Source: Thermoanaerobaculia bacterium
Lineage (GTDB): Bacteria > Acidobacteriota > Thermoanaerobaculia > Gp7-AA8
Assembly: GCA_017883205.1 (NCBI GenBank)
Contig: JADGNZ010000016.1
Coordinates: forward strand, 1-64,000
Reading direction: 5' to 3'
DNA: 64,000 nucleotides
Part shown: positions 37,390 through 56,782 of the stretch, piece by piece
How the letters are laid out: each line of letters opens with the position of its first letter
Position numbering within the stretch: the stretch's first letter is position 1
The notes under the pieces: model-generated
The model's input: the letters and a program-made list of their open reading frames with translations, nothing else
Told to the model about the DNA's origin: nothing
Database searches by the model: none
Position numbers and translations under genes: made by a program

Positions 37390-39321
37390 TCAATCGGCCG
37401 TGCGAGATCGCTCACTGGAGCGGTAGATCGTCCACGCACCCGAGCGGCTCACGGGAGTCCAGAACTGTGATCGCACGTCCCGCGCAACGACGAGGTAGTC
37501 CGCTTCGCGGGCGATTGCGCTGGCAACGGCCACATTGGCGGGATCGCGCAGGAACGCTGACCAGAGCGCGGCGCGCTGCGACACAGAAGAAACTCCCGGA
37601 GGAGCGAGAAACTGCTCGGTGTATGGCGTCGGAAGCCATGACCGCCGCTCGGCGATCCAGGTCGCAGGAAGCTCGCCGCGAATGGTAAGACCGCCAGGAT
37701 CGACCAAGATCGAGCGCCGCGGTGTGTGATCCCTGATCCAGACGAGGGATCGGTAGTAGTCACCGGGAATCGTTACCCCTCGGGATTCCGAATGCATCAG
37801 CCGGTAGTACGGAAACTGCAAGATGTAGGCGGAGGTCTCGATAACTCCCAAAGCGACCAGAAACGCTGCCGTGATCTTCTGCCAGCGGTCCAGGCTGCCA
37901 CGGAACCACATCTCGATCGTCATCGCGATCAGCGGAGCAAAGGCCACGGCCAGTAGCGAGCCGGTCTTGATCGAGAAGTCCACCTGGCCGGTCGAACTGC
38001 CGGAGATGTAAAGAAACGACGGAATCGCGACCGCCGCGACAATCAGCACGTGAAAGAACGACAGCGCTTTCCGTCCCGCCACGGCCAGCAGTCCCCACAG
38101 CGGCAGCATCCCGAAAGTGACCATTCTCAGAAACTGCCCCCCGTCGAACGCAAACGCTGCGTGGCGTGAGTCGCTGGAGCTCAGCACGTGTATCGCCAGA
38201 AACATCGCTGCCGCCGCTCCCCCCATGACCACGGCCCAGGTAAGCACCAAAAGGGGGCGCGCAATGCGACCGAGCGCAAGCCAGAGGAGCAGTGCTGCGA
38301 CGAGCGCGAAGAGCAGCGTGACGCTGTAGCCGATCACCATCGACAACGCTGCCGTTCCCAGTACCAGGTCGATCGTGCGCCGCTCGCGATTCCAGCGCTC
38401 TACCTGCATCGCCGTGAACAGCGCCAGCACGAGCGCAAAGGTGTTGTTCCCGAACACGATCATGCTGTTGAGCGGCGAGAGCAGGAGATGGTTCCGGGTC
38501 GGCATCGCCAACCACCCGAGTGAAAACCGTGCGCCGATGGTTTGGTAGTAGTAGACGGTGAACGGCGCGAAGAGCGCCACCGCCATCGTTGCCTGCGCAG
38601 TGCGGGGGTCGCTTTGCGGATCGGTCGCCACGACGACCGCAACCAGCGTATGCACCAGCAACGCCGCCGTGAGCAGGTTCACCAGGATCAGAGCATTAAA
38701 CGCGGGGATGGCTACACCGCAGAAGTCCGTCAGAATCGCCGGCAGCGCGAAGTACAGCCAGTGATAGTTGAGGGGGCCGCTATCGGTGACATGCGCCAGC
38801 GGCAACAGCGGCGAGGCTCGCATCGTGGCCAGGATGGACACGAGATTGCCGAAGTCGATGGCGAAGAGCCCGTGAAACACCACGTCGTTGCCGGCGGGAG
38901 CTCCGTATCCGAGCCACGCCAACGCGAATAGAACAGGCAGCACGATCGACACGACGAATCGCGAGCGCCTCCACGCCGGAAGGAGCTCGGCAAGCGTGGT
39001 CCGAAACCGGCCAAACTTCGCCGCGGCGCCCGCGAGAACCACACAGACCACGACGTCCGCGATCGCCGGAGTAACCGGAAGGAGCTTGCGCGCGAAAAAC
39101 CAGGGAACGATCAGGATCACCACCAGTACGCTCGCGGCGGTGAAACGCAGATCAGCGGGCATCGCACGCAGATGAGGAAGGCGCATGACCAGCGCACACG
39201 CGGGAAGGAGAAACGCGCCAACGAAGACGACGAAGACAATCGCGCCGGCGAAGCCGCCGGCAAGATGCACCACGATTGCGGCGTCGAGCAGGACCACGGC
39301 GATGAGGATCAGCTTCTTCAT
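37390..39321 (-). CDS. Large multi-pass membrane protein, GT-C-like
   Basis: Protein of 643 residues with about twelve to fourteen helices and a C-terminal soluble part. Loop residues GNDVVFHGLFAIDFGNL and DSGPLNYHWLYFALPAIL resemble the first and second periplasmic loops of membrane glycosyltransferases, but the DE motif seen in the other GT39-like proteins here is absent. The C-terminal region (ILVDPGGLTIRGELPATWIA onward) looks like the periplasmic part of the same class. Family and substrate are uncertain. It is the last gene of the minus-strand amino-sugar operon, 30 bp after the acetyltransferase. Confidence 0.8.
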   Translation of the reverse strand: MKKLILIAVVLLDAAIVVHLAGGFAGAIVFVVFVGAFLLPACALVMRLPHLRAMPADLRFTAASVLVVILIVPWFFARKLLPVTPAIADVVVCVVLAGAAAKFGRFRTTLAELLPAWRRSRFVVSIVLPVLFALAWLGYGAPAGNDVVFHGLFAIDFGNLVSILATMRASPLLPLAHVTDSGPLNYHWLYFALPAILTDFCGVAIPAFNALILVNLLTAALLVHTLVAVVVATDPQSDPRTAQATMAVALFAPFTVYYYQTIGARFSLGWLAMPTRNHLLLSPLNSMIVFGNNTFALVLALFTAMQVERWNRERRTIDLVLGTAALSMVIGYSVTLLFALVAALLLWLALGRIARPLLVLTWAVVMGGAAAAMFLAIHVLSSSDSRHAAFAFDGGQFLRMVTFGMLPLWGLLAVAGRKALSFFHVLIVAAVAIPSFLYISGSSTGQVDFSIKTGSLLAVAFAPLIAMTIEMWFRGSLDRWQKITAAFLVALGVIETSAYILQFPYYRLMHSESRGVTIPGDYYRSLVWIRDHTPRRSILVDPGGLTIRGELPATWIAERRSWLPTPYTEQFLAPPGVSSVSQRAALWSAFLRDPANVAVASAIAREADYLVVARDVRSQFWTPVSRSGAWTIYRSSERSRTAD

Positions 39322-43561: not shown

Positions 43562-44689
43562 TCAGGAAACGGCTCTCGACCGGGGAAGCTGTCGGGAAAC
43601 CTCGATGACGGCATCGATGACCTGATCGACATCGGCGTCCGACAGCTCCGGAAACATCGGCAACGAAATCTCCGTGGCAGCCAGCTCCTCAGCCACCGGG
43701 AAGTCGCCCGGCTTGTACCCAAGAAACGCGTAGGCAGGCTGAAGATGCACTGGGCGCGGGTAGTGGACGCCCGTCTGCACCCCCCGCGCTTCGAGCCGCG
43801 CACGGAGCTCGTCTCGTTGGGCGTGGAAGACGGGAAAGATGTGCCAGATCGGCTCCGACCACTCATTCCTCGGCAGGAGAGAAAGACCGTCGGCCAGTTT
43901 CAATCCTTCGAAGTAGCGAGCAGCGATGGCGCGCCGGCGCGCATTCCAGGCGTCCAGATACCGGAGCTTCACCGAAAGCACAGCCCCCTGAAACCCGTCC
44001 ATCCTCCAGTTGAACCCCAACTCGACGTGGTTATGACGCCCCTGCTGCGCATGGTCGCGCAGGCTTCGGACACGATCGGCGATGGCGACGTCGTCAGTCA
44101 TGACCGCCCCACCTTCGCCAAACGCTCCGAGGTTCTTGCCGGGGTAAAAGCTCGTGGCGTTGACGAGGCCGAAGGTGCCGGTTTGGAGTCCTTTGTATTT
44201 CGCGCCGATCGACTGCGCGCAGTCCTCGATGACAGGAACGCCGCGCTCGCCGGCGATCTCCACGATCGGGTCGAGGTCAACAGGCTGGCCGTAAAGGTGG
44301 ACCGGCAGGATGGCTTTTGTCTTCGGGCCGATGGCTTCCGCGAGCTTCGACGGATCCATCCCGCAGGTCGCCCGATCGACATCGACGAACACGGGCCGGG
44401 CGCCAGCATAACTGATCGCCCACGCCGTCGAGATCCAGGTGTGAGGAGCCGTCACTACTTCGTCTCCCGGTGCAACGCCGGCACCGAGCAGCGCCGCGTG
44501 CACGGACGTAGTCCCGGAGTTCACACACACGACCTCGCGGCAACCCAGGTACGCCGCCAACTCCTTTTCGAATCTCGCGACGGCCGGACCATTCGCGAAC
44601 CCCTGGGTGTCGATAACGTTCTCCAGAGCAGCGAGAACTTCCTCGCGAAGGGCAGCTGTCTGCTTCTTCAATGAAAGAAACGGAATCAT
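43562..44689 (-). CDS. DegT/DnrJ/EryC1/StrS family aminotransferase (WbpE/WlbC-like)
   Basis: Second sugar aminotransferase of 375 residues. MIPFLSLKKQTAALREEVLA, VNSGTTSVHAALLGAGVAPG, VIEDCAQSIGA and TSFYPGKNLGAFGEGG with K185 as the PLP lysine resemble the WbpE/WlbC and FdtB group that aminates position 3 of the sugar. With the dehydrogenase (47592) and N-acetyltransferase (39352) it would form the 3-acetamido route. It is 28 percent or less similar in appearance to the aminotransferase at 39852 by eye, so the two probably serve different sugars; this is a visual estimate only. Overlaps the upstream gene by 4 bp. Confidence 0.93.
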   Translation of the reverse strand: MIPFLSLKKQTAALREEVLAALENVIDTQGFANGPAVARFEKELAAYLGCREVVCVNSGTTSVHAALLGAGVAPGDEVVTAPHTWISTAWAISYAGARPVFVDVDRATCGMDPSKLAEAIGPKTKAILPVHLYGQPVDLDPIVEIAGERGVPVIEDCAQSIGAKYKGLQTGTFGLVNATSFYPGKNLGAFGEGGAVMTDDVAIADRVRSLRDHAQQGRHNHVELGFNWRMDGFQGAVLSVKLRYLDAWNARRRAIAARYFEGLKLADGLSLLPRNEWSEPIWHIFPVFHAQRDELRARLEARGVQTGVHYPRPVHLQPAYAFLGYKPGDFPVAEELAATEISLPMFPELSDADVDQVIDAVIEVSRQLPRSRAVS

Positions 44690-45501
44690 CGAACATCCCC
44701 CATGTGATCATTGGTCTTGAGATTGGGGCTCGGGTTATCGAGATCATGGTCGGCAAGCGCGGCGATGTCGTCGAACTTCTCGAATGCCGCTCCGCGGCTA
44801 CGAATCAAGTCGAGTAACTCCAGGAGCACATCGCGCGTACCGCGTCTTTGCCAAGTGACACCCTTCGCCGGCTCCAGCGAGCCGAAGATTTTCTCACGCG
44901 TGGAGTCATAGAAAGTCCGGGACGGCGCATTGCAACCAACAAACGTCGGATGGAAATTGAAAACCTTCAGCCCGGGAGAAAAAAGTCTTCGCGAGATCTC
45001 CGCCAGAGGCAGTTCATCCGGCCAGTATTCAAAAAAAACATCGTCCTCCAGAAATATCGGGATACGAACGATGCCGGTCCAGTGGCGAAGCGGCCGGATC
45101 GCCTTCGCCATCAACGTTGCGAACTGCGAGTCAGCGATGATTCCCGCCCGGCGCAGCTGCTGCCAGGCCTCAGTTGACTCGATGAAACGATGGCTACGAG
45201 AAGTGCGACAAGACGGAAAGGCCATCTGCAAATGCTGAACGACCTCGCGGGGGCTCGAGCCATGTGACGATCCGGATCCGAAATTGGGATGCCAGCCGTT
45301 AGTCGACGACCCGAGGCGAACAGAAACATCCAGCACGGGGCACGCGTTTGTCCTGAATACGTGTAGCGGAATTTCGTGATCGTTCGCGATATCGAGCAGC
45401 GTCTTGGAGGCCCAGGCCGGGGCCCAATCCTGATCCGACGTAAGGACGAAGACCGGTTCTGATTCGAGCCTCGACAGGATCCCGGTCCCCTTCTCAGGCA
45501 C
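44686..45501 (-). CDS. WbmS-like polysaccharide deacetylase family protein
   Basis: Protein of 271 residues, GTG start at 45501 with AGGGG seven bases upstream, overlapping the acyltransferase gene by 8 bp. VFVLTSDQDWAPAWASKTLL carries the D-x-D-W motif, and WHPNFGSGSSHGSS with FRTNACPVLD and TSRSHRF follow the pattern of WbmS-like NodB-fold proteins found in O-antigen loci. The late FNFHPTFVGCNAPSRTFYDS is also conserved. It would deacetylate or otherwise hydrolyse a sugar intermediate; activity is not established for this group. Confidence 0.85.
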   Translation of the reverse strand: MPEKGTGILSRLESEPVFVLTSDQDWAPAWASKTLLDIANDHEIPLHVFRTNACPVLDVSVRLGSSTNGWHPNFGSGSSHGSSPREVVQHLQMAFPSCRTSRSHRFIESTEAWQQLRRAGIIADSQFATLMAKAIRPLRHWTGIVRIPIFLEDDVFFEYWPDELPLAEISRRLFSPGLKVFNFHPTFVGCNAPSRTFYDSTREKIFGSLEPAKGVTWQRRGTRDVLLELLDLIRSRGAAFEKFDDIAALADHDLDNPSPNLKTNDHMGDVR

Positions 45502-46531
45502 GCTCAATCCCCTTGCTGGTCTCGGAATACCGGCGTCCGCAGCGACCGCATACTGCCACTCCCGCAAGAAACTTCAGCTTCTCTCTGCATTCGCACACAA
45601 CTCCGGCAACACGACAGGGAGATCCGAACGCGAGGGAGTGCGCAGGGATGTCTCTCGTCACCACGGATCCGGTGCCGATGAAGGCATGGTCGCCGATGGC
45701 GACGAGCTGATTGACCGCGGCGCAAGGTGCCAGCCAAACGCCATCGCCGATCGTGACGCTACCCGACACTTCGCTGCATGCCACAAGGCAGACTCCCCGT
45801 CCGGCGCGCACGTTATGGGCCACGTGAACGAGGTTATCGACCTTCGTGTCCGCACCAAGAAACGTCCAGTCGCCCAGCAAGCCTTTGTCAATACACGTGC
45901 TGGATCCGATTGCCACGCCTTCTTGTAACCACACACCTCCGCAATGTTTGACTAGGATCTTCCTGCCATCGGCAACCGCCGTCTCAAAGCCGTCTCCTCC
46001 CACGGTCGCATTCGCTTTGATGGTGACACCGGGGCCGACATACGTGTTTCCTTCGATCACGACACCCGCGCCGATCACCGCCCCACTCCCGACCACGACA
46101 TTCGGGCCGATGATGCTGTGAGCTGAAATTTGCGAGTCGCTGGCAATCCGGCCTTCGAGGCGTTCATAGCGATCATGCTGAGCCATCCATTGATGAATGG
46201 CGTAGAACGCTTCCTTCGGGGATCCAGGCGTAGTCAGAACACTGTTGCCTTCCGGCACACGCTGCGCAAGGCCGGGACGCGTGAGGACAACGCATCCAGA
46301 CAATGGCTCGATCAAGGAAAGCAAAGCTTCAGAGTCAAAATAGACCAGCGAACCAGCGTGATCGCGAACGTCGACGTTCGACAACGACCGCTGGCATGTG
46401 ACCTGCCGGTCTTCGCCGTCCAGCGACAGTCCGAGCAACTCGACAAACAGCGAGGCGCGCGTTGCTTCGAACTTCAACCGGCGCGGACGGCCGTCTGAGT
46501 CGAGCAAGCTTTCAGCAACGACCGTAGGCAT
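45494..46531 (-). CDS. LpxD-like hexapeptide acyltransferase with C-terminal zinc ribbon
   Basis: Protein of 345 residues. The N-terminal 120 residues resemble the uridine-binding domain of LpxD, then hexapeptide repeats form a left-handed beta-helix (IIGPNVVVGSGAVIGAGVVI, GPGVTIKANATVGGDGFE, KVDNLVHVAHNVRAGRGV with the catalytic-type histidine pair). The C-terminus carries CECREKLKF and VCGRCGRRY, four cysteines that suggest a small zinc ribbon not found in housekeeping LpxD. It may acylate an amino sugar at position 3 or 4. It sits between the deacetylase and a GT2, overlapping the former. Confidence 0.88.
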   Translation of the reverse strand: MPTVVAESLLDSDGRPRRLKFEATRASLFVELLGLSLDGEDRQVTCQRSLSNVDVRDHAGSLVYFDSEALLSLIEPLSGCVVLTRPGLAQRVPEGNSVLTTPGSPKEAFYAIHQWMAQHDRYERLEGRIASDSQISAHSIIGPNVVVGSGAVIGAGVVIEGNTYVGPGVTIKANATVGGDGFETAVADGRKILVKHCGGVWLQEGVAIGSSTCIDKGLLGDWTFLGADTKVDNLVHVAHNVRAGRGVCLVACSEVSGSVTIGDGVWLAPCAAVNQLVAIGDHAFIGTGSVVTRDIPAHSLAFGSPCRVAGVVCECREKLKFLAGVAVCGRCGRRYSETSKGIERA

Positions 46532-46576: not shown

Positions 46577-47560
46577 TCATGATCCGTCCTTCCCATCCTC
46601 CGGTCCGGCTCCATTCACGCTTTCCTCGACAATGAAGCGAGGGCGACCTCGGACCTCCTCCAGGGTGCGCCACAGGTACTCGCCAAAGAGACCCAGCACC
46701 AGCATCAGAGTCCCCGAAGAGATCAGAATGACCACCATCAGCGCGGACCATCCTTCAGCGGCCACACCCCCAAACACCCGTCCGGAGGTGAGCTTGTTGA
46801 CGATCAAGAGAACCGCGTACGCGAAACCCACCAGGGCGTAGATGAAACCAAGCGCCGAAGCGAGCTTCAGCGGAGCCACGGAAAAGCCGAATAGCGAGTC
46901 CATGGCCAGTCGGAGTTTTTTTCGCAGTGTCCAGCTCGATTTGCCGGACGATCGCGCCTTCTTTTCGTACCGGACTTCCGCTTGGCGGAAACCCAACCAT
47001 GAAACCAGCGCGACGAGCGATGTGTTTCGTTCGGGAATCGCTTTCAGTATGTCCACCACCCGGCGGTCCAGGAGAAAGAAGTCAGCGCCGGTCGCGGGAA
47101 GGCGGACGGACGTCCACCGATTCATCAAGCGGTAATAGGCGGAGGAAAGCGCGAGTGAGAGCTCGGACACGCCTTCGCGCCCCTCTCGAACGGCCCAGAC
47201 GACCTGAGCGCCACCTCGCCACGACTGCACGAGATCGGGGATGAGCTCCGGCGGGTCTTGACCGTCAGCCGCCAGAATCACGACCGCCGCGCCTCTCGCG
47301 TACGACATGCCGCAAAGTATCGCCATGTGGCTGCCGGCATTTCGGGCGAGACGGATTCCTCGTACACGCGGGTCGCGGTCCGCCCAGGAACGCACCACTT
47401 CGAGGGTCCCGTCATCACTGTGGTCGTCCACGACGATGACCTCCGAGCTCGTATCCGCCGGCAGGTTCGCGAGCACGCGCGGGATCATTACGCTGAGGTT
47501 CGCGGCTTCGCGATACGCCGGCAGGACTACCGACAGGCCGTTGCCGGAGTCTTGCGTCAA
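46577..47560 (-). CDS. GT2 glycosyltransferase of the dolichol-phosphate mannosyltransferase/GtrB type
   Basis: Protein of 327 residues predicted to load a sugar onto polyprenyl phosphate for use by periplasmic GT39-like enzymes. SVVLPAYREAANLSVMI starts the GT-A domain, VDDHSDDGT and RNAGSHMAILCGMSYA follow, ADGQDPPELIPDL is the metal site, YEKKARSSGKSSWTLRKK the JM region, and two C-terminal transmembrane helices complete the family layout. TTG at 47560 is the chosen start, since an in-frame ATG is missing between the previous stop and the first conserved strand. Confidence 0.88.
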   Translation of the reverse strand: MTQDSGNGLSVVLPAYREAANLSVMIPRVLANLPADTSSEVIVVDDHSDDGTLEVVRSWADRDPRVRGIRLARNAGSHMAILCGMSYARGAAVVILAADGQDPPELIPDLVQSWRGGAQVVWAVREGREGVSELSLALSSAYYRLMNRWTSVRLPATGADFFLLDRRVVDILKAIPERNTSLVALVSWLGFRQAEVRYEKKARSSGKSSWTLRKKLRLAMDSLFGFSVAPLKLASALGFIYALVGFAYAVLLIVNKLTSGRVFGGVAAEGWSALMVVILISSGTLMLVLGLFGEYLWRTLEEVRGRPRFIVEESVNGAGPEDGKDGS

Positions 47561-47591
47561 AGGACCACCAGCCTGTCTGGAAACTCGAGAG

Positions 47592-48611
47592 TCATAGCTC
47601 GACGGGCCTGCCTGAATCTCGTAGCGATCGGATCGCGGCTTCCAGGGTTCGAATCGAAGCCAGTCCGTGGTGTCCGCTCGCGCGCGATACGCCGCGGCCA
47701 CGAAGCACCGCGGCAATCTCGCTGAATTCGGCCGCGATCGCCTCATTCGCCTTGATCGCCGGTGCCCGCATGTCCCCTTTGCGGTAACTGACGAGTATCT
47801 GTCGCCTGCTCTCGAGGTCGGTCACATCGAATGCGACTCCCTGGTCGTAGAGCTTGATCTTCGCGTCCTGGTCGAGATCATCGAATATCAAGGATTGCTT
47901 CGAACCGGCGAAGATCATCCGTCGCACCTTGACGGGAGAGAGCCAGGAGAGATGCAGGTGAGCGGTCATTCCGTCGCCATAGTCCAGATGAAGATACGCC
48001 ACGTCGACCGTTCCGCTCGGATTGTGGCTCGTGCCCATCGCCGAGACGGTTCTCGGCGCCCGGCCGAGGATGTAGTGAAGGATCGAGAGATCGTGCGGCG
48101 CAAGATCCCAGATGACGTCGACATCCGGTTGGAAGAGGCCGAGGTTGATCCGAACCGAGTCAATGTAGAGGAGGTCGCCAAGGTTTCCGGCGTCAAACTG
48201 TCGTTTGATCTCCTCAACGGCATTCGTAAACAGGAACGTGTGGTCGACGAAAATCTTCAGGCCGGCCGTATCCGCCAGCGCCAGGAGTTTCTCCCCTTCC
48301 TCGACTGTCGCCGTGAAGGGCTTCTCAACCAGAACGTTGGACCCGGCCTCCAGGCATTGGCGCGCCAATGCGCAGTGCGATGCCACCGGAGTTGCGATAG
48401 CCACGAGATCGGGCTTCCCGGCCAGCAGTCCATCCAGGGTTTCCGCGGGTACCGCCGAGGGATAGAACGCCGCCACCGACTTCAAACGCGCGGGGTCGGC
48501 GTCGCACAGCCCCGATAGTCGGAAATCAATGCTAGCGGAGAAGTTCCGGGCGAGATTCGGTCCCCAATAGCCGAGGCCCAGGACCGCCGCTTGCAGAAGC
48601 TCCTCGTTCAC
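47592..48611 (-). CDS. Gfo/Idh/MocA family oxidoreductase (WlbA/WbpB-like)
   Basis: NAD-dependent sugar dehydrogenase of 339 residues. AAVLGLGYWGPNLARNF holds the Rossmann glycine motif (12-17), VLVEKPFTATVEEGEKLL the conserved E-K-P, VDHTFLFTNAVEEIKRQFDA and IWDLAPHDLSILHYI the catalytic region. In the WlbA/WbpB group it oxidises the 3-hydroxyl of UDP-N-acetylglucosaminuronic acid for the aminotransferase. It is the first gene of the operon; a longer TTG-started frame is possible but a GTG at 48611 is better placed. Confidence 0.9.
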   Translation of the reverse strand: MNEELLQAAVLGLGYWGPNLARNFSASIDFRLSGLCDADPARLKSVAAFYPSAVPAETLDGLLAGKPDLVAIATPVASHCALARQCLEAGSNVLVEKPFTATVEEGEKLLALADTAGLKIFVDHTFLFTNAVEEIKRQFDAGNLGDLLYIDSVRINLGLFQPDVDVIWDLAPHDLSILHYILGRAPRTVSAMGTSHNPSGTVDVAYLHLDYGDGMTAHLHLSWLSPVKVRRMIFAGSKQSLIFDDLDQDAKIKLYDQGVAFDVTDLESRRQILVSYRKGDMRAPAIKANEAIAAEFSEIAAVLRGRGVSRASGHHGLASIRTLEAAIRSLRDSGRPVEL

Positions 48612-48783: not shown

Positions 48784-49374
48784 ATGCTCGACCCAAACAC
48801 CGACCCTGAACTTCGGAACCAAATTCTCACGTACCTCCTGAGCGAAGCGATGACCGATCGCGAGCGCGCACGGCTGCTCGGGCTTCCGGAAGGCTGCAGA
48901 ATTCGGGAGCGGGCGAAAATCCTGGCTCCGGAAAAACTCATCATGGGAACTAATGTCTGGATCGGCGAGGGGGCCGTTCTGGACGCGCAGGGTGGGCTCG
49001 CCATTGGCGACAATACACAGATTGGGCTGAACGTGTTCATCTGGACGCATACCAGCCACATGCAGGCGCTCGCAGGAAAAACCGGCAGCCTGAGCAAAGA
49101 AGGGATCGAGTACTTCCCGACGAAGATCGGGAAGAATTGTTTCATCGCCGGTCCGTCCGTCATCGCGCCCGGCGTAACGATAGGAGACGGCGTGATCATC
49201 TCCCCGTTCGCGATGGTAGACAGCGACGTTCCTGACGGCGAGATCATCAGCCCGCACCTTACCGCACGCCGTGAGTTGAAGAAAGTTGAGAAGGAGCTCA
49301 GGGACTTGCGCAAGTCCTTTGAAGAGATGAGGAGTCTCGTGGCCAGGTTAACAGGCACCGACCCTGAAAGCTGA
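48784..49374 (+). CDS. Hexapeptide acyltransferase (LbH type)
   Basis: Protein of 196 residues with hexapeptide repeats (ILAPEKLIMGTNVWIGEG, GGLAIGDNTQIGLNVFIWTH, KIGKNCFIAGPSVIAPGVTI then GDGVIISPFAMVDSDVP) and a charged C-terminal helix of about 35 residues that may form a coiled coil (ELKKVEKELRDLRKSFEEMR). Such enzymes take acyl groups from CoA or carrier protein. It leads an operon that also encodes an acyl-carrier protein and acyl-activating enzyme, so it could be the transfer step of that cassette. A GGAGAG ribosome site precedes the ATG. Confidence 0.88.
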   Translation: MLDPNTDPELRNQILTYLLSEAMTDRERARLLGLPEGCRIRERAKILAPEKLIMGTNVWIGEGAVLDAQGGLAIGDNTQIGLNVFIWTHTSHMQALAGKTGSLSKEGIEYFPTKIGKNCFIAGPSVIAPGVTIGDGVIISPFAMVDSDVPDGEIISPHLTARRELKKVEKELRDLRKSFEEMRSLVARLTGTDPES

Positions 49375-49379
49375 ATCGG

Positions 49380-50561
49380 ATGTACATCCTGAGCGAGACC
49401 GATCTAAGTGCAGACCTCACGCCGTTGGACGAGGCGTGGCGGCGGCCGGAGAGCTTCGTCTTGCTGCCGGACAAGTCCGGCGTGTCGCGGGAGTGGCTTG
49501 GCCACGCGCTCGGGGAAGTGCCTCGAGAGTTGGACCACGACCATTTCGGGTTGCTAACTTCCGGCAGCACCGGGCAGCCGAAGCTGATCATTGGGTCGCG
49601 CGATCGCGCAAAGAGCCTGGCGGCGGTCCTCCACAGGCTTCAGCTCAGTGAGCCGGTGCGGCAGACAGTCCTGCTTCTCCCTCTCAGTTACACATATGCC
49701 TTCGTAAACCAATGGGTTTGGGCCACGGTTCACAAGAGGACGCTGGTCCCGACACACGGCCTCAGCGATCCGGAAGGGGTCGAAGCGGCGTTGCAGACGG
49801 CTACGGATGCCATGCTCTGTCTGGTCGGCGCACAAGTTCCGATGTTGGCTCGCTATTTCAGCGACCGATCGTTTCCAGGCGTCCTCCGGGTTCACTTTGC
49901 AGGTGGCCGTTTTCCCCAGGAGCGGCTTGATGTCGTCCGGTCGTTGTTTCCTCGGGCGATGATCTTCAGCAACTATGGCTGCGCCGAGGCCATGCCGCGG
50001 CTGACGCTGCGCCGTGCCGAGGATTCAGACGATCCGAACGACATCGGCAAGCCTTTGCCCGGCGTTGCGCTGAAAAACGGAGCCGATGGCGAGTTGCTGT
50101 TTCAAAGCCCGTACGGTGCCGTAGGCTTCGTTGGCGCGGAAGCCTTCCAGGCGATTGGCCCCGACAAATGGGCCGGCACCGGCGACCTCGCAGAACCTAC
50201 GCCATCGGGCACATGGCGGCTGTCGGGTCGTTCCAGGGAGGTGTTCAAGCGCTACGGGGAGAAGATCTCGCTTTCTCTGCTGATGTCGACGGTGAGCGGA
50301 GCCTGGAAGAATAACGCTTTGTTCTATCGTGAAAAGGATCGGGCCGGCGAAGAGGGACACGTCCTGTTGCTGGCGCCGGCCCCATCCGAAACTGAAGTGA
50401 GAGCAATCCTGAAAGGATTTCGCGCCAACCATGCGAGAGTCCTCTGGCCACTGCGAATCGAAAGCGTTGATTCCTTTCCGCTCCTGCCGAACGGGAAGGT
50501 GGACGTGCTGACGGCGTCGACCCTTCCCGGCAGAACTGTCCATTGGTATCAAAGGATCTGA
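49380..50561 (+). CDS. AMP-binding (ANL superfamily) acyl-activating enzyme
   Basis: Adenylate-forming enzyme of 393 residues, shorter than the typical 500 or more, lacking part of the N-terminal region. LLTSGSTGQPKLIIGSRDRA (58-77) is the P-loop, FVNQWVWATVHKRTLV follows, FAGGRFPQERLDVVRSLFP and SNYGCAEAMPRLTLR are core motifs, and SGRSREVFKRYGEKISL plus LLPNGKVDV (catalytic Lys) end the protein. It would make acyl-AMP and load a carrier protein; the next gene encodes such a carrier. Starts 5 bp after the acyltransferase gene. Confidence 0.9.
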   Translation: MYILSETDLSADLTPLDEAWRRPESFVLLPDKSGVSREWLGHALGEVPRELDHDHFGLLTSGSTGQPKLIIGSRDRAKSLAAVLHRLQLSEPVRQTVLLLPLSYTYAFVNQWVWATVHKRTLVPTHGLSDPEGVEAALQTATDAMLCLVGAQVPMLARYFSDRSFPGVLRVHFAGGRFPQERLDVVRSLFPRAMIFSNYGCAEAMPRLTLRRAEDSDDPNDIGKPLPGVALKNGADGELLFQSPYGAVGFVGAEAFQAIGPDKWAGTGDLAEPTPSGTWRLSGRSREVFKRYGEKISLSLLMSTVSGAWKNNALFYREKDRAGEEGHVLLLAPAPSETEVRAILKGFRANHARVLWPLRIESVDSFPLLPNGKVDVLTASTLPGRTVHWYQRI

Positions 50562-50564
50562 TTG

Positions 50565-50810
50565 ATGACGAATCTTGAAAAGTTGAGGGAGTTGGTGATC
50601 GATGTCTTCCTGCTCGATCCGGCGGAGTTCCGTTTCGACTTGACCCGGGAAGAGGTGGATACCTGGGACTCGCTGGCGTTGGTGTCGCTGGCGGTAGGCA
50701 TCAAGTCGACCTTCGGCTACCATCCGACGCCCGCCGAAGCAATGAGCATCCATAGCGTTCGGGATGTCATTCGAATCCTCAGCGAGAAAGGTGTTCGTTT
50801 TGAAGAGTGA
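50565..50810 (+). CDS. Acyl carrier protein
   Basis: Small acidic carrier protein of 81 residues. The 4'-phosphopantetheine attachment site is Ser36 in DTWDSLALVSLAVG, followed by the usual helix. AAAGGA eight bases before the ATG is a good ribosome site; a TTG three bases earlier is less likely. As a dedicated carrier in a surface-polysaccharide operon it should hold the acyl group made by the upstream ligase until the reductase pair or an acyltransferase uses it. It is not the housekeeping ACP, since it lacks that gene's neighbours and its DSL context differs. Confidence 0.92.
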   Translation: MTNLEKLRELVIDVFLLDPAEFRFDLTREEVDTWDSLALVSLAVGIKSTFGYHPTPAEAMSIHSVRDVIRILSEKGVRFEE

Positions 50811-51732
50811 GCTGCCGCCTCTTTGGACACTTCAGGAGCTAGGCTCACTGGACCCGGAAACGACCTGGGTGTGGGCCGGCCCCACCGTCGCTGCGCGCGT
50901 CTCCGCGCAATTTCGCTACGCGCAGACCACGCCCGGCGATCCGCTCCCTGACCGAGTGGCCACGCTGATCGTCGTTGGCGGAGGAACCATCATCGATCAG
51001 GCCAAGCTTCGCGCGCGGGACTCCGGCCGGAGCATCCGCCTGATAGCCATCCCTTCGATTTGGGGCAGCGGTGCCGAAGCGTCGCCGATCGTCGTGCTCG
51101 ATCATGAGGGCGCCAAGGACATCCGGATCCATTCGAAGTACCTCCCTGACGGCCGGGCCATCTGGCCGGAACTGGCTGCCTCGATTCCTCCCGCACGCGC
51201 CCGGGAAGCATGCGGCGACTGCTGGGCACACGCGCTGGAGGGCTTCCTCTCGCCGCTGGCCGGCGATGACCTCCGCCAGGAGTTGTCTGATGTGATGCGC
51301 TCGATGCTGGCACTGCCACTGGCCAACGACCCGCGTTGGTTCGAGGTGGGCGCACGTGCGTGCGCCGGGCAGGCGCGTTCGAGCGTAGGGCTGGTGCACG
51401 GCCTGGCCCACGCCCTGGAGTCGCCGCTTCGCGCTGCGCAGCCGTCAGCAGGCTGGCATCACGCCAAACTCTGCTCGCTGTTTCTCTACCCGGTCATGCA
51501 ATGGAATCGCACGATCTCCGATTCATGGAGCCAGAAGCTGGCTGACTATCAGCTGGATGAGGCCGCGATCATGGCCGTGGCCCGCGAGTTGTTCAACCCT
51601 CAGACGTACAACGGCATCGTACCGATTCTGGCCGAGCATTGGCGGAGCGTACTGCTGAACCCATGCACGCGAACCAACAGCACGCTGGTTCGTCCATCGG
51701 CCCTCGACTACTTCCGCCAGACCTTCCCATGA
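50800..51732 (+). CDS. Iron-containing alcohol dehydrogenase family protein
   Basis: Metal-dependent alcohol dehydrogenase of about 310 residues, shorter than typical members. VVGGGTIIDQAKLRARD binds the cofactor, IPSIWGSGAEASPIVVLD is the conserved S-G-S-E loop, and the metal ligands lie in GLVHGLAHALESPL and WHHAKLCSLFL. The TTG at 50800 has AAGGTG six bases upstream and overlaps the carrier gene; a GTG at 50791 is an alternative. Expected to interconvert an alcohol and an aldehyde, so it may act after the LuxE/LuxC pair or supply the aldehyde. Substrate unknown. Confidence 0.85.
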   Translation: MKSELPPLWTLQELGSLDPETTWVWAGPTVAARVSAQFRYAQTTPGDPLPDRVATLIVVGGGTIIDQAKLRARDSGRSIRLIAIPSIWGSGAEASPIVVLDHEGAKDIRIHSKYLPDGRAIWPELAASIPPARAREACGDCWAHALEGFLSPLAGDDLRQELSDVMRSMLALPLANDPRWFEVGARACAGQARSSVGLVHGLAHALESPLRAAQPSAGWHHAKLCSLFLYPVMQWNRTISDSWSQKLADYQLDEAAIMAVARELFNPQTYNGIVPILAEHWRSVLLNPCTRTNSTLVRPSALDYFRQTFP

Positions 51733-52772
51733 GCCGCCTGCTGGACCAGCCGCCGTTTGCTCCGCGGGACGATGCCGGTTTCCTTGCCGAAATGAACTTG
51801 CTGAGCCGTTTTCATCTCGACGGCTGCCTCGAGTATCGTCGCATTTGGCCTGACTGGTCGCCAGCGACGGACATCGCGGGACTGCCGTTCCTCCATGTCG
51901 GGCTGTTCAAACGGCTGTTGCTTCGCACGACCTCGGATACCGTGCAGCACCGAAGGACGCTGACGTCATCGGCGACGACCGGCAGCTCGCCCAGCCAGAT
52001 CGTGCTCGATCAGAAGAGCTCTGTCCTTCAGGCACAGAGCAGTCTGGCGATCCTCCGTGAGATGGTTGGCCCCGAAATGCGTCCTCTGATTGTCCTCGAC
52101 GATGCGCGGTCTTTGCACCGGCGGAGCGTAACCGCGCGGGTCGCGGCGGCGATGAGCCTCAAGCCGCTGGCCAGCGAAATCCACTTCGTGCTCGACGAAT
52201 CCGTGCAGCCTCCGATCGTCCGGTGGGACGCCGTCCGCGAGATTCTCCTCCATCACAACGATCTCCTGGTCTATGGATTCACCTCGATCCTTTGGCAGTC
52301 GTGGACATCCGGACAGTTTCCCGCGGAAGTACGCGGGCTGTTGGCGGGCAAGCGAATCCACTTCGTCCACAGCGGCGGCTGGAAAAAACTGGAGAGCTTA
52401 AGCGTCACGCGGGAGACCTTCGATGCGCGATTGCTCGAAGGGTTGTCTGACGGCTCCCATGTCGTCGACTACTACGGCCTGGTCGAGCAGGTCGGGATCA
52501 TCTATCCCCTTTGCGAGCACGGCTATCGACACGTTCCCCGTTGGGCCGGCATCGTCGTCCGCGATCCGTGGACGATGGAGCCGCTTGCCAACACGGAGGG
52601 TTTGCTGCAATCGATGAATGTGCTCGCGTACGGTGCCCCGTACCACAACGTGCTGACCGAAGACCTTGGCCGTCTGGTACCAGGAGAATGCTCCTGCGGC
52701 CGGGCCGGCCGCCGGTTCGAGCTTCTGGGACGGGCTCCGCAGGTCGAAGTGCGAGGCTGCGCCAATGTCTGA
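51729..52772 (+). CDS. LuxE-like acyl-protein synthetase
   Basis: Protein of 347 residues similar to LuxE, the component of bacterial fatty acid reductase that activates an acid with ATP and transfers it to a cysteine. LTSSATTGSSPSQIVLD (78-94) is the glycine/serine loop, FVHSGGWKKLESLSV and VVDYYGLVEQVGIIYP are conserved, and the C-terminus ends RGCANV, placing a cysteine where LuxE proteins carry the acyl-accepting residue. The ATG overlaps the previous stop by ATGA, and its 3' end overlaps LuxC by 8 bp. No luciferase genes are nearby. Confidence 0.9.
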   Translation: MSRLLDQPPFAPRDDAGFLAEMNLLSRFHLDGCLEYRRIWPDWSPATDIAGLPFLHVGLFKRLLLRTTSDTVQHRRTLTSSATTGSSPSQIVLDQKSSVLQAQSSLAILREMVGPEMRPLIVLDDARSLHRRSVTARVAAAMSLKPLASEIHFVLDESVQPPIVRWDAVREILLHHNDLLVYGFTSILWQSWTSGQFPAEVRGLLAGKRIHFVHSGGWKKLESLSVTRETFDARLLEGLSDGSHVVDYYGLVEQVGIIYPLCEHGYRHVPRWAGIVVRDPWTMEPLANTEGLLQSMNVLAYGAPYHNVLTEDLGRLVPGECSCGRAGRRFELLGRAPQVEVRGCANV

Positions 52773-53955
52773 GCACCTGCACTACTTCTCCACCGACATG
52801 CGCCGTTGGGCCGTCACATTGCCGTTCGATCTCGACGCCGTGATCGGCCAGTGGGACCAATTGCGCGCGGTGATGGTGCGCCACATGCCCGAGGCGTTCA
52901 ATCGCGACGAATGGGCATACCTGATCACGTTCCTTGATCCGCACAATCTCGAAAGGCCGTTTCTGCAGGCGTTCGGACGGCGGGAAGCGCTCGCCGAGAG
53001 TTCAATCAACGGCTCGATCGACTCGCTTGCGCGGCCGCGCGGCCCGGTGGCGGTCTGGCTGCCAAACAATGTCAGCTTGCTGGGACCATTGATGCTGGTG
53101 CTGGTGAGTCTCACGGGTAATCGCGTCCGGCTCAAGGCGGGATCGCAAGCCGAGGATTTGACCGGCGCGTTGTTGGACTTCGCGCGAGCGCACCTTCCCA
53201 GCGGTCCGCTTGCCGCCTTCCTCGACGACTGCGTGCAACTGGAGAGGTTCGATCGCGACGACCCGCGAAATCGGGAGATGGCCAAGGGCGCCGCTGTGCG
53301 CGTAATGTTCGGTTCGGATGAGAGCATCGCGGCCATAGACGCACTCGAACACATCCCCGGGGGCGGCGCCATCGCCTTTTCCGACAGGCGTTCAGAAGTC
53401 TGGATGGAGACTAGCCAGCTACATCAGGACACTCTGAAGATATTGATCAAGGTGTTCGCCATCTACGGCCGCGCTGGATGCACCTCGCCCAGTCGGGTGG
53501 TGCTTCTCAACGGGCGGCGGGAGGAAGCCGTCGCTCTCCGCGATCGGCTGCTGGAGCTGTGGCCATACGCCGTGCGGAATGACATGCCGATTCACGTGGC
53601 ATCGGAGAACATCATGGCGCGCCAGTGGGCGGCCGCATTGGGTTGGGATGCGGAACTTGCACCACGGAACAGCGTGATGGTCGCCGCGGGGACCCCCGGC
53701 CTGTCGCCGGTAGCGGGGCTGATGTCGTTGCTGGTAGTGCCGGCAACGGTCGAGCAGGCCGTGCAGACGCTGCCTGCGAACATTCAGACGATAGGGTATG
53801 CCCTGGAGCGGCCGGGGGATCCGCGGTGGCTTCAAATCCTGGCCCCGACCTCCGCCAAGCGCTTCGTGCCGTTGGCCCAGATGCACCACTTTGGGCCGCT
53901 GTGGGATGGCTACGACTATTGGCGGCAGTTGTTTGAGATCGTTGAAATCGCCTAG
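52765..53955 (+). CDS. LuxC-like acyl reductase
   Basis: NADPH-dependent acyl-CoA/acyl-protein reductase of 396 residues, similar to LuxC, which reduces an acyl thioester to an aldehyde. GRAGCTSPSRVVLLNG (235-250) contains the catalytic Cys239, and VAVWLPNNVSLLGPLMLVLV with RLKAGSQAEDL forms the nucleotide region. The protein is somewhat shorter than marine LuxC. It is directly coupled to the LuxE-like gene, so together they should act as a fatty-acid-reductase-like complex on whatever is bound to the carrier or LuxE cysteine. Followed by 76 bp and then a membrane protein. Confidence 0.9.
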   Translation: MSEHLHYFSTDMRRWAVTLPFDLDAVIGQWDQLRAVMVRHMPEAFNRDEWAYLITFLDPHNLERPFLQAFGRREALAESSINGSIDSLARPRGPVAVWLPNNVSLLGPLMLVLVSLTGNRVRLKAGSQAEDLTGALLDFARAHLPSGPLAAFLDDCVQLERFDRDDPRNREMAKGAAVRVMFGSDESIAAIDALEHIPGGGAIAFSDRRSEVWMETSQLHQDTLKILIKVFAIYGRAGCTSPSRVVLLNGRREEAVALRDRLLELWPYAVRNDMPIHVASENIMARQWAAALGWDAELAPRNSVMVAAGTPGLSPVAGLMSLLVVPATVEQAVQTLPANIQTIGYALERPGDPRWLQILAPTSAKRFVPLAQMHHFGPLWDGYDYWRQLFEIVEIA

Positions 53956-54031: not shown

Positions 54032-55495
54032 ATGGAAGAGCACCGCTCACGCAATGTCGGTATCCTGATTGCGCTTCAGGTAGCGTATCTGGCTTGGTTG
54101 CTTCTGTTCGGCCGCTTCATGGGCGGGGACGAGATCGCGTACAAAGCCCCCGGCCGCGAGTGGGCACGTAGCGGCGCATTCATCGCTCCCGAACTGACGG
54201 GGTACGGCGTGTGGCGTGACCCGAAACATCCCTACGAGGTGCGGCGAGGTTTTGGCCCTCCCCTTTTCACATTCGCGTTCGGCCTATTCGTGAAAGTCTT
54301 CGGATTCAACCCCGTGACAAGTGTTGCCTTCGATGGCCTGATTCACATCCTTCTCGGATGGGCGACCTGGGCACTGGCGAGGGCGCTTGGACCGCGGCTT
54401 CCCTATGAAGCGGCGATGATCGCGGCGGCGGCCACGATTCCACTTACCACCGGTGGACGGCCAGATGAGTTGGGAGCACTGCTGGCGATGTTCGGCTCGG
54501 CCATCCTCCTTCGCAGCGTCACATCAGGGCGCGCCGCCGCCGCCGGCATACTCTTCGGCCTGTCCGGCGGCACGAGCCTGGTCGCTGGAATCATTCTGCT
54601 GGCGTGGCCCACCCGTGCTTTCTTCCAGAAGCGGGATGCGGGCTGGAAGCCGCTCGGAGTATTCCTCTTCTGTGGCACGCTCACCTTCGCAATGGTGATG
54701 ACGCCTCTGATTCTAATTACTCCTTACGGGCTCCAGCAGATTTGGCGGAGCACCCGTACCTCCGTAAGCCCTACCTACCGCTGGGCATTCGAGTTCGCCC
54801 TGCGCTATGGTCGATCTCACTATCTGGCGTGCTGCGCGGCACTCGTGATCGCGACCGCCCATGCGGTTCAAGCGGTTCGTCAGCGTGACTGGCGAAGATG
54901 GTTCGAGCTCTGGATACCCCCCCTCGCGGGTCTCTGCGCTCTGCTCGTCCTGCTTCCCGCCAAGTACTATTACATCTGGATCATCGATCTCTCTCTCTTC
55001 GCCGCAGCAGTTTGTGCGGTGGCGATGCAGTCGTGGCGCGTTCGAACGCGGGCGTTCGTCGTAGCTCTGGCAATGTTGTTCTGGTGCGCGGCCTCCTCGC
55101 GATTCGTTTTCATGTCGTTGGTCCGGGCAACGCTTCCTCCCGATCAGCGGATGACGGAGAACGTTGCGTTGTTGCACAGGATGATTCCGGCAGGCAGCGG
55201 TGTGATGACATACGACTTCTGGCCGGCCCTGGCCGGTTCGTCCTATCGAACGTACTCGACTGAAGCTGATCCGCCGTGGAGCGACGTCGACTACATCATC
55301 CTGACCGGCAACGGTTCCGGCGCGTCCGGACAGCCACAGACGCTTCGTCCGGAGCAATTGAGCTATGTCAACGGTCATTACTCGCCGATCTACAACAACC
55401 TCAACCGTCAACCGTTTCGACTGGGACCCATTCACACCAACAGCGCGTGGGGCTACGGGCCGCTGATTTTGAAGCGAAACGACTCGGCGCGATGA
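54032..55495 (+). CDS. Multi-pass membrane glycosyltransferase-like protein (GT39 type)
   Basis: Protein of 487 residues with about nine to ten helices. GGDEIAYKAPGREWARSGA (from 31) is the first-loop acidic motif of PMT/ArnT-like enzymes, and HPYEVRRGFGPPLFTFAFGL and TTGGRPDELGALLAMFGS are further loop segments. A periplasmic C-terminal part of about 110 residues follows (RMTENVALLHRMIPAGSGVM onward). Start chosen at 54032, since the longer frame upstream overlaps the LuxC gene in another frame. It is the last gene of the acyl operon. Confidence 0.85.
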   Translation: MEEHRSRNVGILIALQVAYLAWLLLFGRFMGGDEIAYKAPGREWARSGAFIAPELTGYGVWRDPKHPYEVRRGFGPPLFTFAFGLFVKVFGFNPVTSVAFDGLIHILLGWATWALARALGPRLPYEAAMIAAAATIPLTTGGRPDELGALLAMFGSAILLRSVTSGRAAAAGILFGLSGGTSLVAGIILLAWPTRAFFQKRDAGWKPLGVFLFCGTLTFAMVMTPLILITPYGLQQIWRSTRTSVSPTYRWAFEFALRYGRSHYLACCAALVIATAHAVQAVRQRDWRRWFELWIPPLAGLCALLVLLPAKYYYIWIIDLSLFAAAVCAVAMQSWRVRTRAFVVALAMLFWCAASSRFVFMSLVRATLPPDQRMTENVALLHRMIPAGSGVMTYDFWPALAGSSYRTYSTEADPPWSDVDYIILTGNGSGASGQPQTLRPEQLSYVNGHYSPIYNNLNRQPFRLGPIHTNSAWGYGPLILKRNDSAR

Positions 55496-55551: not shown

Positions 55552-56782
55552 TCACCGCCTCCGCAGGATCCCTCGGACCTTGGCCGGCCAGTCCGGATAC
55601 ATGAACGGTTTTTCGAATAGGACGAACAAAGCGGCGCAGATAGCTACACAGCCTGGAAGCAACACCAATCCCTGCATTGCAATGAAACCTCCATACGGCA
55701 AGTTGGACCACCGAAGAACAGTCCAATGACCCAGGAAATGATACGTAAACTGGTGGTAGAGATAGATCGTGTAGCACATCCCACCGATCAGGACGAGAGG
55801 GCGCAGGCGCATGATTCGGTTGGCCCAGATACCGCGCATCGTCCCGACGAACAACATCGCAATGCAGACTGCCAATAGAAAGTCACCGATCAGCAACCGG
55901 GACGAAACGACAACTCCATTCTGAAGTTGTGACGTCACAAACCCAGCCTGGACAAGCACCGGCATACCCACGCAACCGAGTACCGCAAGTATGCTCCAGC
56001 CGGCGCCCTTTTGAGGTTCCCTTCCAGTCAGCGACAAACAGGTCCGCCATGACGAGCCCGACCACAAAGAACGGCAGGAATCGGAGGATCGTCGCGCCGG
56101 GGTTTACGCCCATCCTCATTGCGACGAAATCAAGCGCGGCCGCTCCTGCTCCCAACCCCACCAGGCTCACGCGGCGAAGGATCTTCGGCTTTATGGAGTA
56201 GAGCGCGCAAATCATCGGCGCGAGAAGGTAGAACTGAATCTCGATCTCCAGCGACCAGGCCACATTGTTGATCGTGCTGCCCACGCCGTACACGAAGTTG
56301 TGCGAGTAGAGAAGGCTGGCGAGAAGATGCGGCATCATCACGCCGGGGCGGAGATCGGGGCGCCCTCCAGCCCAGTAGTAATCCGCCGCCTTGAGAAGGA
56401 AAAGCAACACCATGTTGATGAAGTAGGTTGGCTCGATGCGCGTCACTCTGCGCGCGAAATAGCGCCGCAACCGAACCTTGGTACCGCTTCGGATTCGTTG
56501 CAGAACGAAGGGAAGTCCCAGTACAAATCCGCTGATCGCAAAAAAAACTTCCACACCGACAAATCCGGTGCGAAGAAGAGAGTCCAACGCCGCTCCCAAG
56601 CCCGTCGGCCAGTGGCCGTGTGCGCTGTAGAACTGAAGCGACAAAGCATTGAGATGGAACAGCATCACCGTGATGATGGCGATGAAGCGGAGGCCGTCGA
56701 TCTCGGGAATGAAGCGGCCGGAGGACGTGACGCGGGAGAGCGATTGCTCCAGTCTCGCGGCCGCTCGACAGACCAGACTCAA
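55552..56782 (-). pseudogene. Frameshifted acyltransferase family 3 (OafA-like) gene
   Basis: The upstream part (from 56782) encodes RFIPEIDGLRFIAIITVMLF, FVGVEVFFAISGFVLGLPFV, RYFARRVTRIEPTYFINMVL and NVAWSLEIEIQFYLLAP, the standard beginning of an O-acyltransferase. The frame then leaves homology after VMADLFVADW. The matching remainder, GWSILAVLGCVGMPVLVQ through IGGMCYTIYLYHQFTYHF and LFEKPFMYPDWPAKVRG, lies in another frame ending at 55552. The shift occurs between about 56005 and 56035, in GGAAGGG or AAAAGG runs. Either a real lesion or a sequencing error; both halves together have the usual length. It converges with the membrane glycosyltransferase. Confidence 0.85.

What the first reader, a model, noticed from the sequence alone, without database searches (positions are those of the whole stretch)
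48784..53955. Carrier-protein plus LuxE/LuxC reductase cassette inside a polysaccharide locus
Seen: one tightly overlapped plus-strand operon encodes a hexapeptide acyltransferase, a short AMP-forming acyl ligase, a dedicated acyl carrier protein (Ser36), an iron alcohol dehydrogenase, a LuxE-like protein ending RGCANV and a LuxC-like protein with Cys239 in GRAGCTSPSR. Known: LuxE activates and carries an acyl group on cysteine, and LuxC reduces it to an aldehyde; in luminous bacteria they serve luciferase, which is absent here. Inferred: the operon makes an aldehyde or alcohol from a carrier-bound acid and uses it to modify a sugar of this locus, perhaps as an unusual acyl, alkyl or amine-derived substituent. 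The operon faces the amino-sugar operon across a 172-bp divergent region, suggesting joint use.
Basis: partly seen in the sequence, partly recalled or inferred. Interest (0 to 1): 0.78.

Follow-up and report, generated by a model that had tools for sequence, protein, structure and literature searches.

The report
Hydroxyacyl-making cassette for sugar decoration
A bacterial sugar-coat gene cluster carries a five-gene cassette, related to genes the cholera bacterium uses on its O-antigen, that most likely turns one end of a small diacid into an alcohol and hangs the other end on an amino sugar; it is an undescribed, widely shared variant of a known kind of module.

Summary
In detail: HMM searches confirm hexapeptide transferase, short AMP-forming ligase, carrier protein (weak Pfam score, motif intact), Fe-alcohol dehydrogenase, LuxE and LuxC in one overlapping operon at 48784-53955. 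The active-site cysteines of LuxE and LuxC align with the solved LuxC/LuxE complex. The core order ligase-ACP-ADH-LuxE-LuxC recurs in a tight clade spanning seven named phyla. About 70 further relatives carry a related cassette, usually with an SDR instead of Fe-ADH. The hexapeptide gene is not part of the conserved core.

Best explanation: an RfbKLMN-type module (Vibrio cholerae O1 tetronate genes; Aeromonas flagellin islands). LuxE, LuxC and ADH reduce one carboxyl of a short dicarboxylic acid to an alcohol. The ligase loads the other carboxyl on the ACP, and an acyltransferase puts the hydroxyacyl group on an amino sugar. Relatives carry a WecD-fold N-acyltransferase and, in three loci tested, WecE. 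The window instead has a hexapeptide transferase facing a 3-amino-sugar operon. A same-genus genome keeps the locus but carries another acyl-building cassette in this slot.

Substrate and target sugar are inferred, not shown.

The parts
48784..49374 (+). Hexapeptide-repeat (LbH) acyltransferase, candidate for transfer of the hydroxyacyl group to the sugar amine
   Evidence: Hexapep 46.4 bits; best PDB relative 8vr6 acetyltransferase 1.4e-17; not conserved beside the core in the close clade
49380..50561 (+). Short (393 aa) AMP-forming acid:ACP ligase (RfbL/WbeL-like role)
   Evidence: PF00501 53.5 bits; P-loop TSGSTG and catalytic Lys region in A6/A7; AF2 pLDDT 86.5, Foldseek to MenE, DltA and acyl-ACP synthetase; 50-54% identity in the nearest clade members
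50565..50810 (+). Dedicated acyl carrier protein, DSL motif Ser36
   Evidence: PP-binding 19.2 bits, sub-threshold; NCBIfam ACP 1.7e-4; found directly after the ligase in all 12 close relatives
50764..51732 (+). Iron-type alcohol dehydrogenase (RfbM-like role), probable start TTG 50800
   Evidence: PF00465 32 bits, just over cut-off; metal-site D/H residues invariant with Vibrio RfbM-like proteins
51729..52772 (+). LuxE-type acyl-protein synthetase, acyl-carrying Cys344
   Evidence: PF04443 131.8 bits, 3.9e-38; Cys aligns with 7xc6 LuxE; clade 100/100
52765..53955 (+). LuxC-type acyl reductase, catalytic Cys239
   Evidence: PF05893 45.5 bits; Cys aligns with 7xc6 LuxC
54032..55495 (+). Multi-pass membrane protein, probable last gene of the operon; possibly a GT-C-type glycosyltransferase (inference)
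   Evidence: Same strand, 76 bp after LuxC, at least 7 hydrophobic segments, no Pfam or PDB match; 39% homologue at the same place in same-genus genome G002
47592..48611 (-). Gfo/Idh/MocA oxidoreductase resembling UDP-GlcNAc 3-dehydrogenase; first gene of the divergent amino-sugar operon
   Evidence: Pfam; NF040723 131.8 bits, below its 450 cut-off
46577..47746 (-). GtrB/ArnC-family polyprenyl-phosphate glycosyltransferase
   Evidence: 5ekp GtrB 2.4e-64, ArnC 1.9e-39
45494..46531 (-). LpxD-like hexapeptide N-acyltransferase, alternative candidate for the acyl transfer
   Evidence: TIGR01853 174 bits, below cut-off
43562..44689 (-). DegT sugar aminotransferase, nearest solved relatives DesV/QdtB/WbpE (3-aminotransferases)

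Best explanation
The operon is a variant of the RfbKLMNO-type hydroxyacyl cassette. LuxE activates one carboxyl of a short dicarboxylic acid (malate or succinate are candidates) as acyl-AMP and holds it on Cys344. LuxC takes it on Cys239 and reduces it to the semialdehyde, and the Fe-ADH reduces that to an alcohol. The short AMP-forming ligase then activates the remaining carboxyl and loads the hydroxy acid on Ser36 of the ACP. An acyltransferase, most likely the hexapeptide protein 48784-49374 (alternatively the LpxD-like 45494-46531), transfers the hydroxyacyl group to the amine of an amino sugar made by the divergent operon. A GtrB/ArnC-type enzyme then probably puts the sugar on a polyprenyl phosphate for use in the surface glycan. 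Shown by sequence: gene content, order, catalytic residues, conservation, exchange with another acyl cassette in a same-genus genome. Inferred: substrate, reaction order, target sugar and final glycan.
For: HMM assignments and catalytic residues. Core order ligase-ACP-ADH-LuxE-LuxC conserved in the 13-member clade, Fe-ADH in 12 of 13. In 69 wider relatives LuxC is adjacent in 69, ligase in 66, ACP in 57, and an SDR or Fe-ADH in 47. Vibrio-like genomes carry ACP-ligase(473 aa)-FeADH(374)-LuxE::LuxC(825), matching V. cholerae O1 tetronate genes VC0248-0252, whose WbeL is 471 aa and whose deletion removes O1 antigen (PMC3441752). RfbL is reported to activate 2,4-dihydroxybutanoate for RfbK or CoA (PMC12208996), and RfbN carries a LuxE domain (PMC4772473). 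In nine close relatives the next gene (beyond a GT2 in L049) encodes a protein of no Pfam family, predicted at pLDDT 94.5 and closest in fold to WecD, the dTDP-Fuc4N N-acetyltransferase (TM 0.71); three of these loci carry WecE above its curated cut-off. Same-genus genome G002 keeps the locus flanks but has KAS III x2, SDR x2, an ANL ligase and an Antibiotic_NAT-family transferase in this slot, and no LuxE.
Against: No biochemistry exists for this clade that I could find. The V. cholerae pathway itself is described as putative in part. The transferase differs between window and relatives, so the N-acyl end point is carried over by analogy. The window's ACP and ADH score only near Pfam cut-offs. 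Identity to the Vibrio RfbKLMN-like proteins is low (ligase 19%, ADH 18-20%). The Fe-ADH and ligase give no clue to chain length. The V. cholerae O1 proteins themselves could not be fetched for a direct comparison.
Confidence: 0.68

Rival explanations
1. A lipid-sugar cassette: LuxE/LuxC reduce a medium or long fatty acid and the ACP and ligase handle fatty chains, giving a fatty acyl or alkyl group on the glycan, as suggested for Aeromonas and enterobacterial flagellin islands.
For: Luminous LuxE/LuxC act on fatty acids; papers on the related SDR-type cassettes propose a 'liposugar' (PMC7874193; PMC4875605).
Against: No thioesterase (LuxD) or chain-elongation genes in the operon; two separate acid-activating enzymes fit a diacid better; the cassette with assigned chemistry (V. 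cholerae O1) makes a C4 hydroxy acid.
Confidence: 0.14
2. The ACP and ligase feed LuxE: the acid is loaded on the ACP, passed to LuxE and LuxC, and leaves as a free aldehyde or alcohol that is used as an alkyl or amine-derived substituent (one form of the reader's proposal).
For: Gene order ligase-ACP-ADH-LuxE-LuxC; ADH makes an alcohol.
Against: LuxE activates free acids itself, so a second ligase for the same carboxyl would be redundant; relatives end in N-acyltransferases beside amino-sugar aminotransferases; no glycosyl-alkyl or aminating enzyme acting on an aldehyde is attached to the cassette.
Confidence: 0.1
3. The cassette is a passenger in the locus, serving an unrelated small metabolite.
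For: Strong LuxE match only in this one of 148 related genomes, so it probably arrived laterally; L050 and L052 have no obvious sugar genes directly beside it by the HMMs used.
Against: In a same-genus genome the same slot holds another acyl-building cassette between conserved glycan genes; in most long relatives glycosyltransferase, aminotransferase or acyltransferase genes lie within 9 kb (39 of 55; 5 of 7 in the close clade).
Confidence: 0.06

Closest known systems
Vibrio cholerae O1 rfbKLMNO (wbe; VC0248-VC0252), 3-deoxy-L-glycero-tetronate on perosamine
   Same: ACP, AMP-forming ligase, LuxE and LuxC functions, and by recall Fe-ADH (RfbM) and a hexapeptide transferase (RfbO); lies among amino-sugar genes
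   Different: LuxE and LuxC are separate genes here (fused in the Vibrio relatives fetched); ligase about 80 aa shorter; gene order differs; sugar genes are not the perosamine set; sequence identity low
Aeromonas Group II flagellin glycosylation island cassette (orf1-3, luxE, luxC)
   Same: ACP, reductase, AMP-ligase, LuxE and LuxC in one cluster beside glycosyltransferases (PMC7874193)
   Different: Reductase is an SDR, not Fe-ADH; LuxE in another well-separated clade; flagellin rather than a surface polysaccharide locus
Luminescence operon luxCDABE fatty acid reductase
   Same: LuxE and LuxC families, conserved acyl-carrying cysteines
   Different: No luciferase or LuxD found here; has ACP, ligase and ADH; LuxE separated from the lux-type row by a very long branch
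WecD/WecE (Fuc4NAc synthesis)
   Same: Relatives of this cassette carry a WecD-fold transferase and WecE
   Different: Not present in the window itself; donor would be hydroxyacyl-ACP rather than acetyl-CoA

Membership tests
RfbKLMNO-type hydroxyacyl (tetronate) cassette | Dedicated ACP next to AMP-forming ligase | tested here: met
RfbKLMNO-type hydroxyacyl (tetronate) cassette | LuxE and LuxC functions with acyl-carrying cysteines | tested here: met
   separate genes instead of a fusion
RfbKLMNO-type hydroxyacyl (tetronate) cassette | Iron-type alcohol dehydrogenase with metal site | tested here: met
RfbKLMNO-type hydroxyacyl (tetronate) cassette | Hexapeptide transferase (RfbO) in the operon | tested here: inconclusive
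   A hexapeptide gene is present but orthology to RfbO could not be tested, and it is absent from the close relatives' cassettes
RfbKLMNO-type hydroxyacyl (tetronate) cassette | Sequence clade with V. cholerae O1 proteins | tested here: inconclusive
   O1 locus not retrievable; Vibrio RfbKLMN-like LuxE falls in a neighbouring branch of the same half of the tree, 98/90
RfbKLMNO-type hydroxyacyl (tetronate) cassette | Product is 3-deoxy-L-glycero-tetronate | not testable with these tools
   Needs glycan chemistry or enzyme assays
Bioluminescence lux operon | luxAB luciferase and luxD present | tested here: not met
   No such gene among the neighbouring window genes scanned with Pfam; luxAB/luxD were not searched for genome-wide
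Aeromonas/Enterobacteriaceae flagellin-island acyl cassette | SDR (3-oxoacyl-ACP reductase) in the cassette and pse/flagellin genes beside it | tested here: not met
   Fe-ADH instead of SDR; no pse or flagellin genes recognised among the neighbours scanned

The most novel reading that the evidence does not exclude
The clade ligase(short)-ACP-FeADH-LuxE-LuxC, shared across seven named phyla, is a distinct, undescribed biosynthetic module that makes an N-linked omega-hydroxyacyl group other than tetronate for 3- or 4-amino-deoxy sugars, is passed between phyla as a unit, and exchanges with other acyl-building cassettes (KAS III/SDR type) in a fixed slot of the glycan locus while the terminal transferase is replaced freely.
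Probability: 0.35. Interest if true: 0.6.

Novelty: new variant of a known kind. Interest (0 to 1): 0.45.

Why it matters
LuxE and LuxC are textbook bioluminescence proteins, yet most relatives found here sit in glycan loci of bacteria not known to glow. A conserved, transferable cassette gives a clear, testable function for them: making hydroxyacyl groups for amino sugars. The V. cholerae O1 tetronate pathway rests largely on sequence inference, and a compact split-gene version from other organisms would be convenient for in vitro reconstitution. The module also gives a sequence signature for predicting unusual N-acyl substituents from genomes.

Tried and rejected
Tried without result: finding the V. 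cholerae O1 locus itself (a ToxS search in the order, then genus-wide searches: 228 genomes of the Vibrio-like genus gave four RfbN-like fusions, and those whose neighbourhood was fetched lie in a nonulosonate-type locus). A paper for structure 8vr6 (none held). Pfam/NCBIfam on the WecD-fold gene of relatives (no family). Promoter/terminator scan (no excess over shuffles). Homology for the membrane protein 54032-55495 (none in Pfam or PDB). Rejected: luminescence role (no luciferase gene seen, distant LuxE); chance clustering (order conserved in the whole clade); the hexapeptide gene as part of the conserved core (absent from the close clade). My HMM for hexapeptide and GT2 genes is narrow, so counts of sugar neighbours are lower bounds.

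Full report
OBSERVATION. Pfam supports each assignment: Hexapep; AMP-binding 53.5 bits; PP-binding 19.2 (just under its 20.8 cut-off); Fe-ADH 32 (just over 31.3); LuxE 131.8; LuxC 45.5. The ACP serine is residue 36 in a WDSL motif. LuxE Cys344 (RGCANV) and LuxC Cys239 (GCTSPSR) align with the cysteines of the solved LuxC/LuxE complex 7xc6. The residues expected at the Fe-ADH metal site (D152, H156, H212/H216, H233) are invariant between the window, its relatives and Vibrio proteins. The ADH probably starts at TTG 50800, which gives the same 11-bp overlap with the ACP as in relatives.

CONSERVATION. A scan of one genome per species with a LuxE profile gave at least 572 relatives, of which 80 were kept. 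Eleven of those, plus one from a whole-genome search (L033), form a clade with the window (LuxE 49-59% identical, support 100/100). They come from Pseudomonadota, Verrucomicrobiota, Acidobacteriota, Kiritimatiellota, Myxococcota, Omnitrophota and Planctomycetota. The core ligase-ACP-ADH-LuxE-LuxC is in the same order throughout; L051 alone lacks the ADH and has the ligase and ACP in one reading frame, and the contig of L043 ends inside the cassette. In the other 69 loci LuxC is adjacent in all, ligase in 66, ACP in 57 and a reductase (usually an SDR) in 47. These counts come from loci chosen by LuxE similarity, and some contigs are short. The window's hexapeptide gene is not part of this core.

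WHAT THE CASSETTE SERVES. In nine close relatives the next gene downstream (in L049 after an intervening GT2 gene) encodes a protein of about 235 aa; the representatives tested have no Pfam or NCBIfam family. Its AlphaFold model (pLDDT 94.5) is closest to WecD, the dTDP-4-amino-4,6-dideoxygalactose (dTDP-Fuc4N) N-acetyltransferase (TM 0.71, E 1.5e-10). In three loci the aminotransferase nearby is WecE above its curated cut-off (548-597 bits against 375). So in relatives the cassette sits beside the enzymes that make and N-acylate an amino sugar. The window lacks the WecD-fold gene; a hexapeptide transferase stands first in the operon instead. Facing it is an operon with a Gfo/Idh oxidoreductase nearest to UDP-GlcNAc 3-dehydrogenase, a DegT aminotransferase nearest to the 3-aminotransferases DesV, QdtB and WbpE, an LpxD-like N-acyltransferase, a WbmS-like deacetylase and a GtrB/ArnC-type polyprenyl-phosphate glycosyltransferase. 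I infer a 3-amino sugar as acceptor; this is the weakest step.

CASSETTE EXCHANGE. A same-genus genome (G002) has no LuxE match but keeps the locus. Window 59877-63991 matches at 72% DNA identity, the membrane protein after LuxC at 39%, and the start of the protein at 37390-39321 at 69%, in consistent order and orientation. Between them G002 carries two KAS III genes, two SDRs, an AMP-forming ligase, an Antibiotic_NAT-family transferase and a GT2 34% identical to the window's GtrB/ArnC-type one. The slot thus appears to hold interchangeable acyl-building cassettes.

KNOWN RELATIVES. In V. cholerae O1 the tetronate genes are VC0248-VC0252; WbeL is 471 aa and its deletion removes O1 antigen (PMC3441752). 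RfbL is reported to activate 2,4-dihydroxybutanoic acid and to attach it to RfbK or CoA (PMC12208996). RfbN carries a LuxE domain (PMC4772473). That RfbM is an Fe-ADH and RfbO a hexapeptide protein is from my own knowledge of Morona et al. 1995, which is not held. I could not fetch the O1 locus, but genomes of a Vibrio-like genus contain ACP-ligase(473)-FeADH(374)-LuxE::LuxC(825). Aeromonas Group II flagellin islands have ACP, 3-oxoacyl-ACP reductase, AMP-synthetase, LuxE and LuxC (PMC7874193), and enterobacterial islands have similar sets (PMC4875605); both papers suggest a liposugar.

MECHANISM. Two separate acid-activating systems in one operon make best sense if the substrate has two carboxyls. 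LuxE, LuxC and ADH turn one into a primary alcohol. The ligase loads the other on the ACP. An acyltransferase moves the hydroxyacyl group to a sugar amine. This fits 2,4-dihydroxybutanoate (from malate) in V. cholerae and would equally fit 4-hydroxybutanoate (from succinate). Diacid substrate, order of steps, identity of the transferase in the window, and target sugar are inferred. The ligase model has an ordinary ANL fold (nearest MenE, DltA, acyl-ACP synthetase) despite its short N-terminus.

VERDICT. New here, as far as I could search: the delimited split-gene, Fe-ADH clade across seven phyla, the swap of terminal transferase (WecD-fold or hexapeptide), and the exchange of whole acyl cassettes in one slot within a genus.

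Noticed in passing
55552-56782 (- strand): An acyltransferase-3 (OafA-like) gene is split between two overlapping frames (55883-56782 and 55552-56067), suggesting a frameshift, either a pseudogene or an assembly error.
   Followed up: no
L046:12209-12901 and homologues in L045, L047, L049, L051, L053, L033, L068, L069, L079, L106, L111: Widespread family of about 235 aa, no Pfam or NCBIfam model in the representatives tested, predicted WecD-like fold, in LuxE/LuxC cassettes; a candidate new sugar N-acyltransferase family.
   Followed up: partly
L170 (G002:C105:36001-56000): Same-genus genome carries a different acyl-building cassette (two KAS III, two SDRs, ANL ligase, Antibiotic_NAT transferase) at the equivalent place of the locus.
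   Followed up: partly
54032-55495: Membrane protein of about 487 aa with no Pfam or PDB relative, conserved in the same-genus genome next to the swapped cassette; may be a new GT-C-like glycosyltransferase.
   Followed up: partly
L153, L163, L164, L166: Vibrio-like genomes hold an RfbKLMN-like cassette inside a nonulosonate-type locus (NeuB-like and CMP-sugar synthetase-like genes, judged by eye) rather than a perosamine locus.
   Followed up: partly
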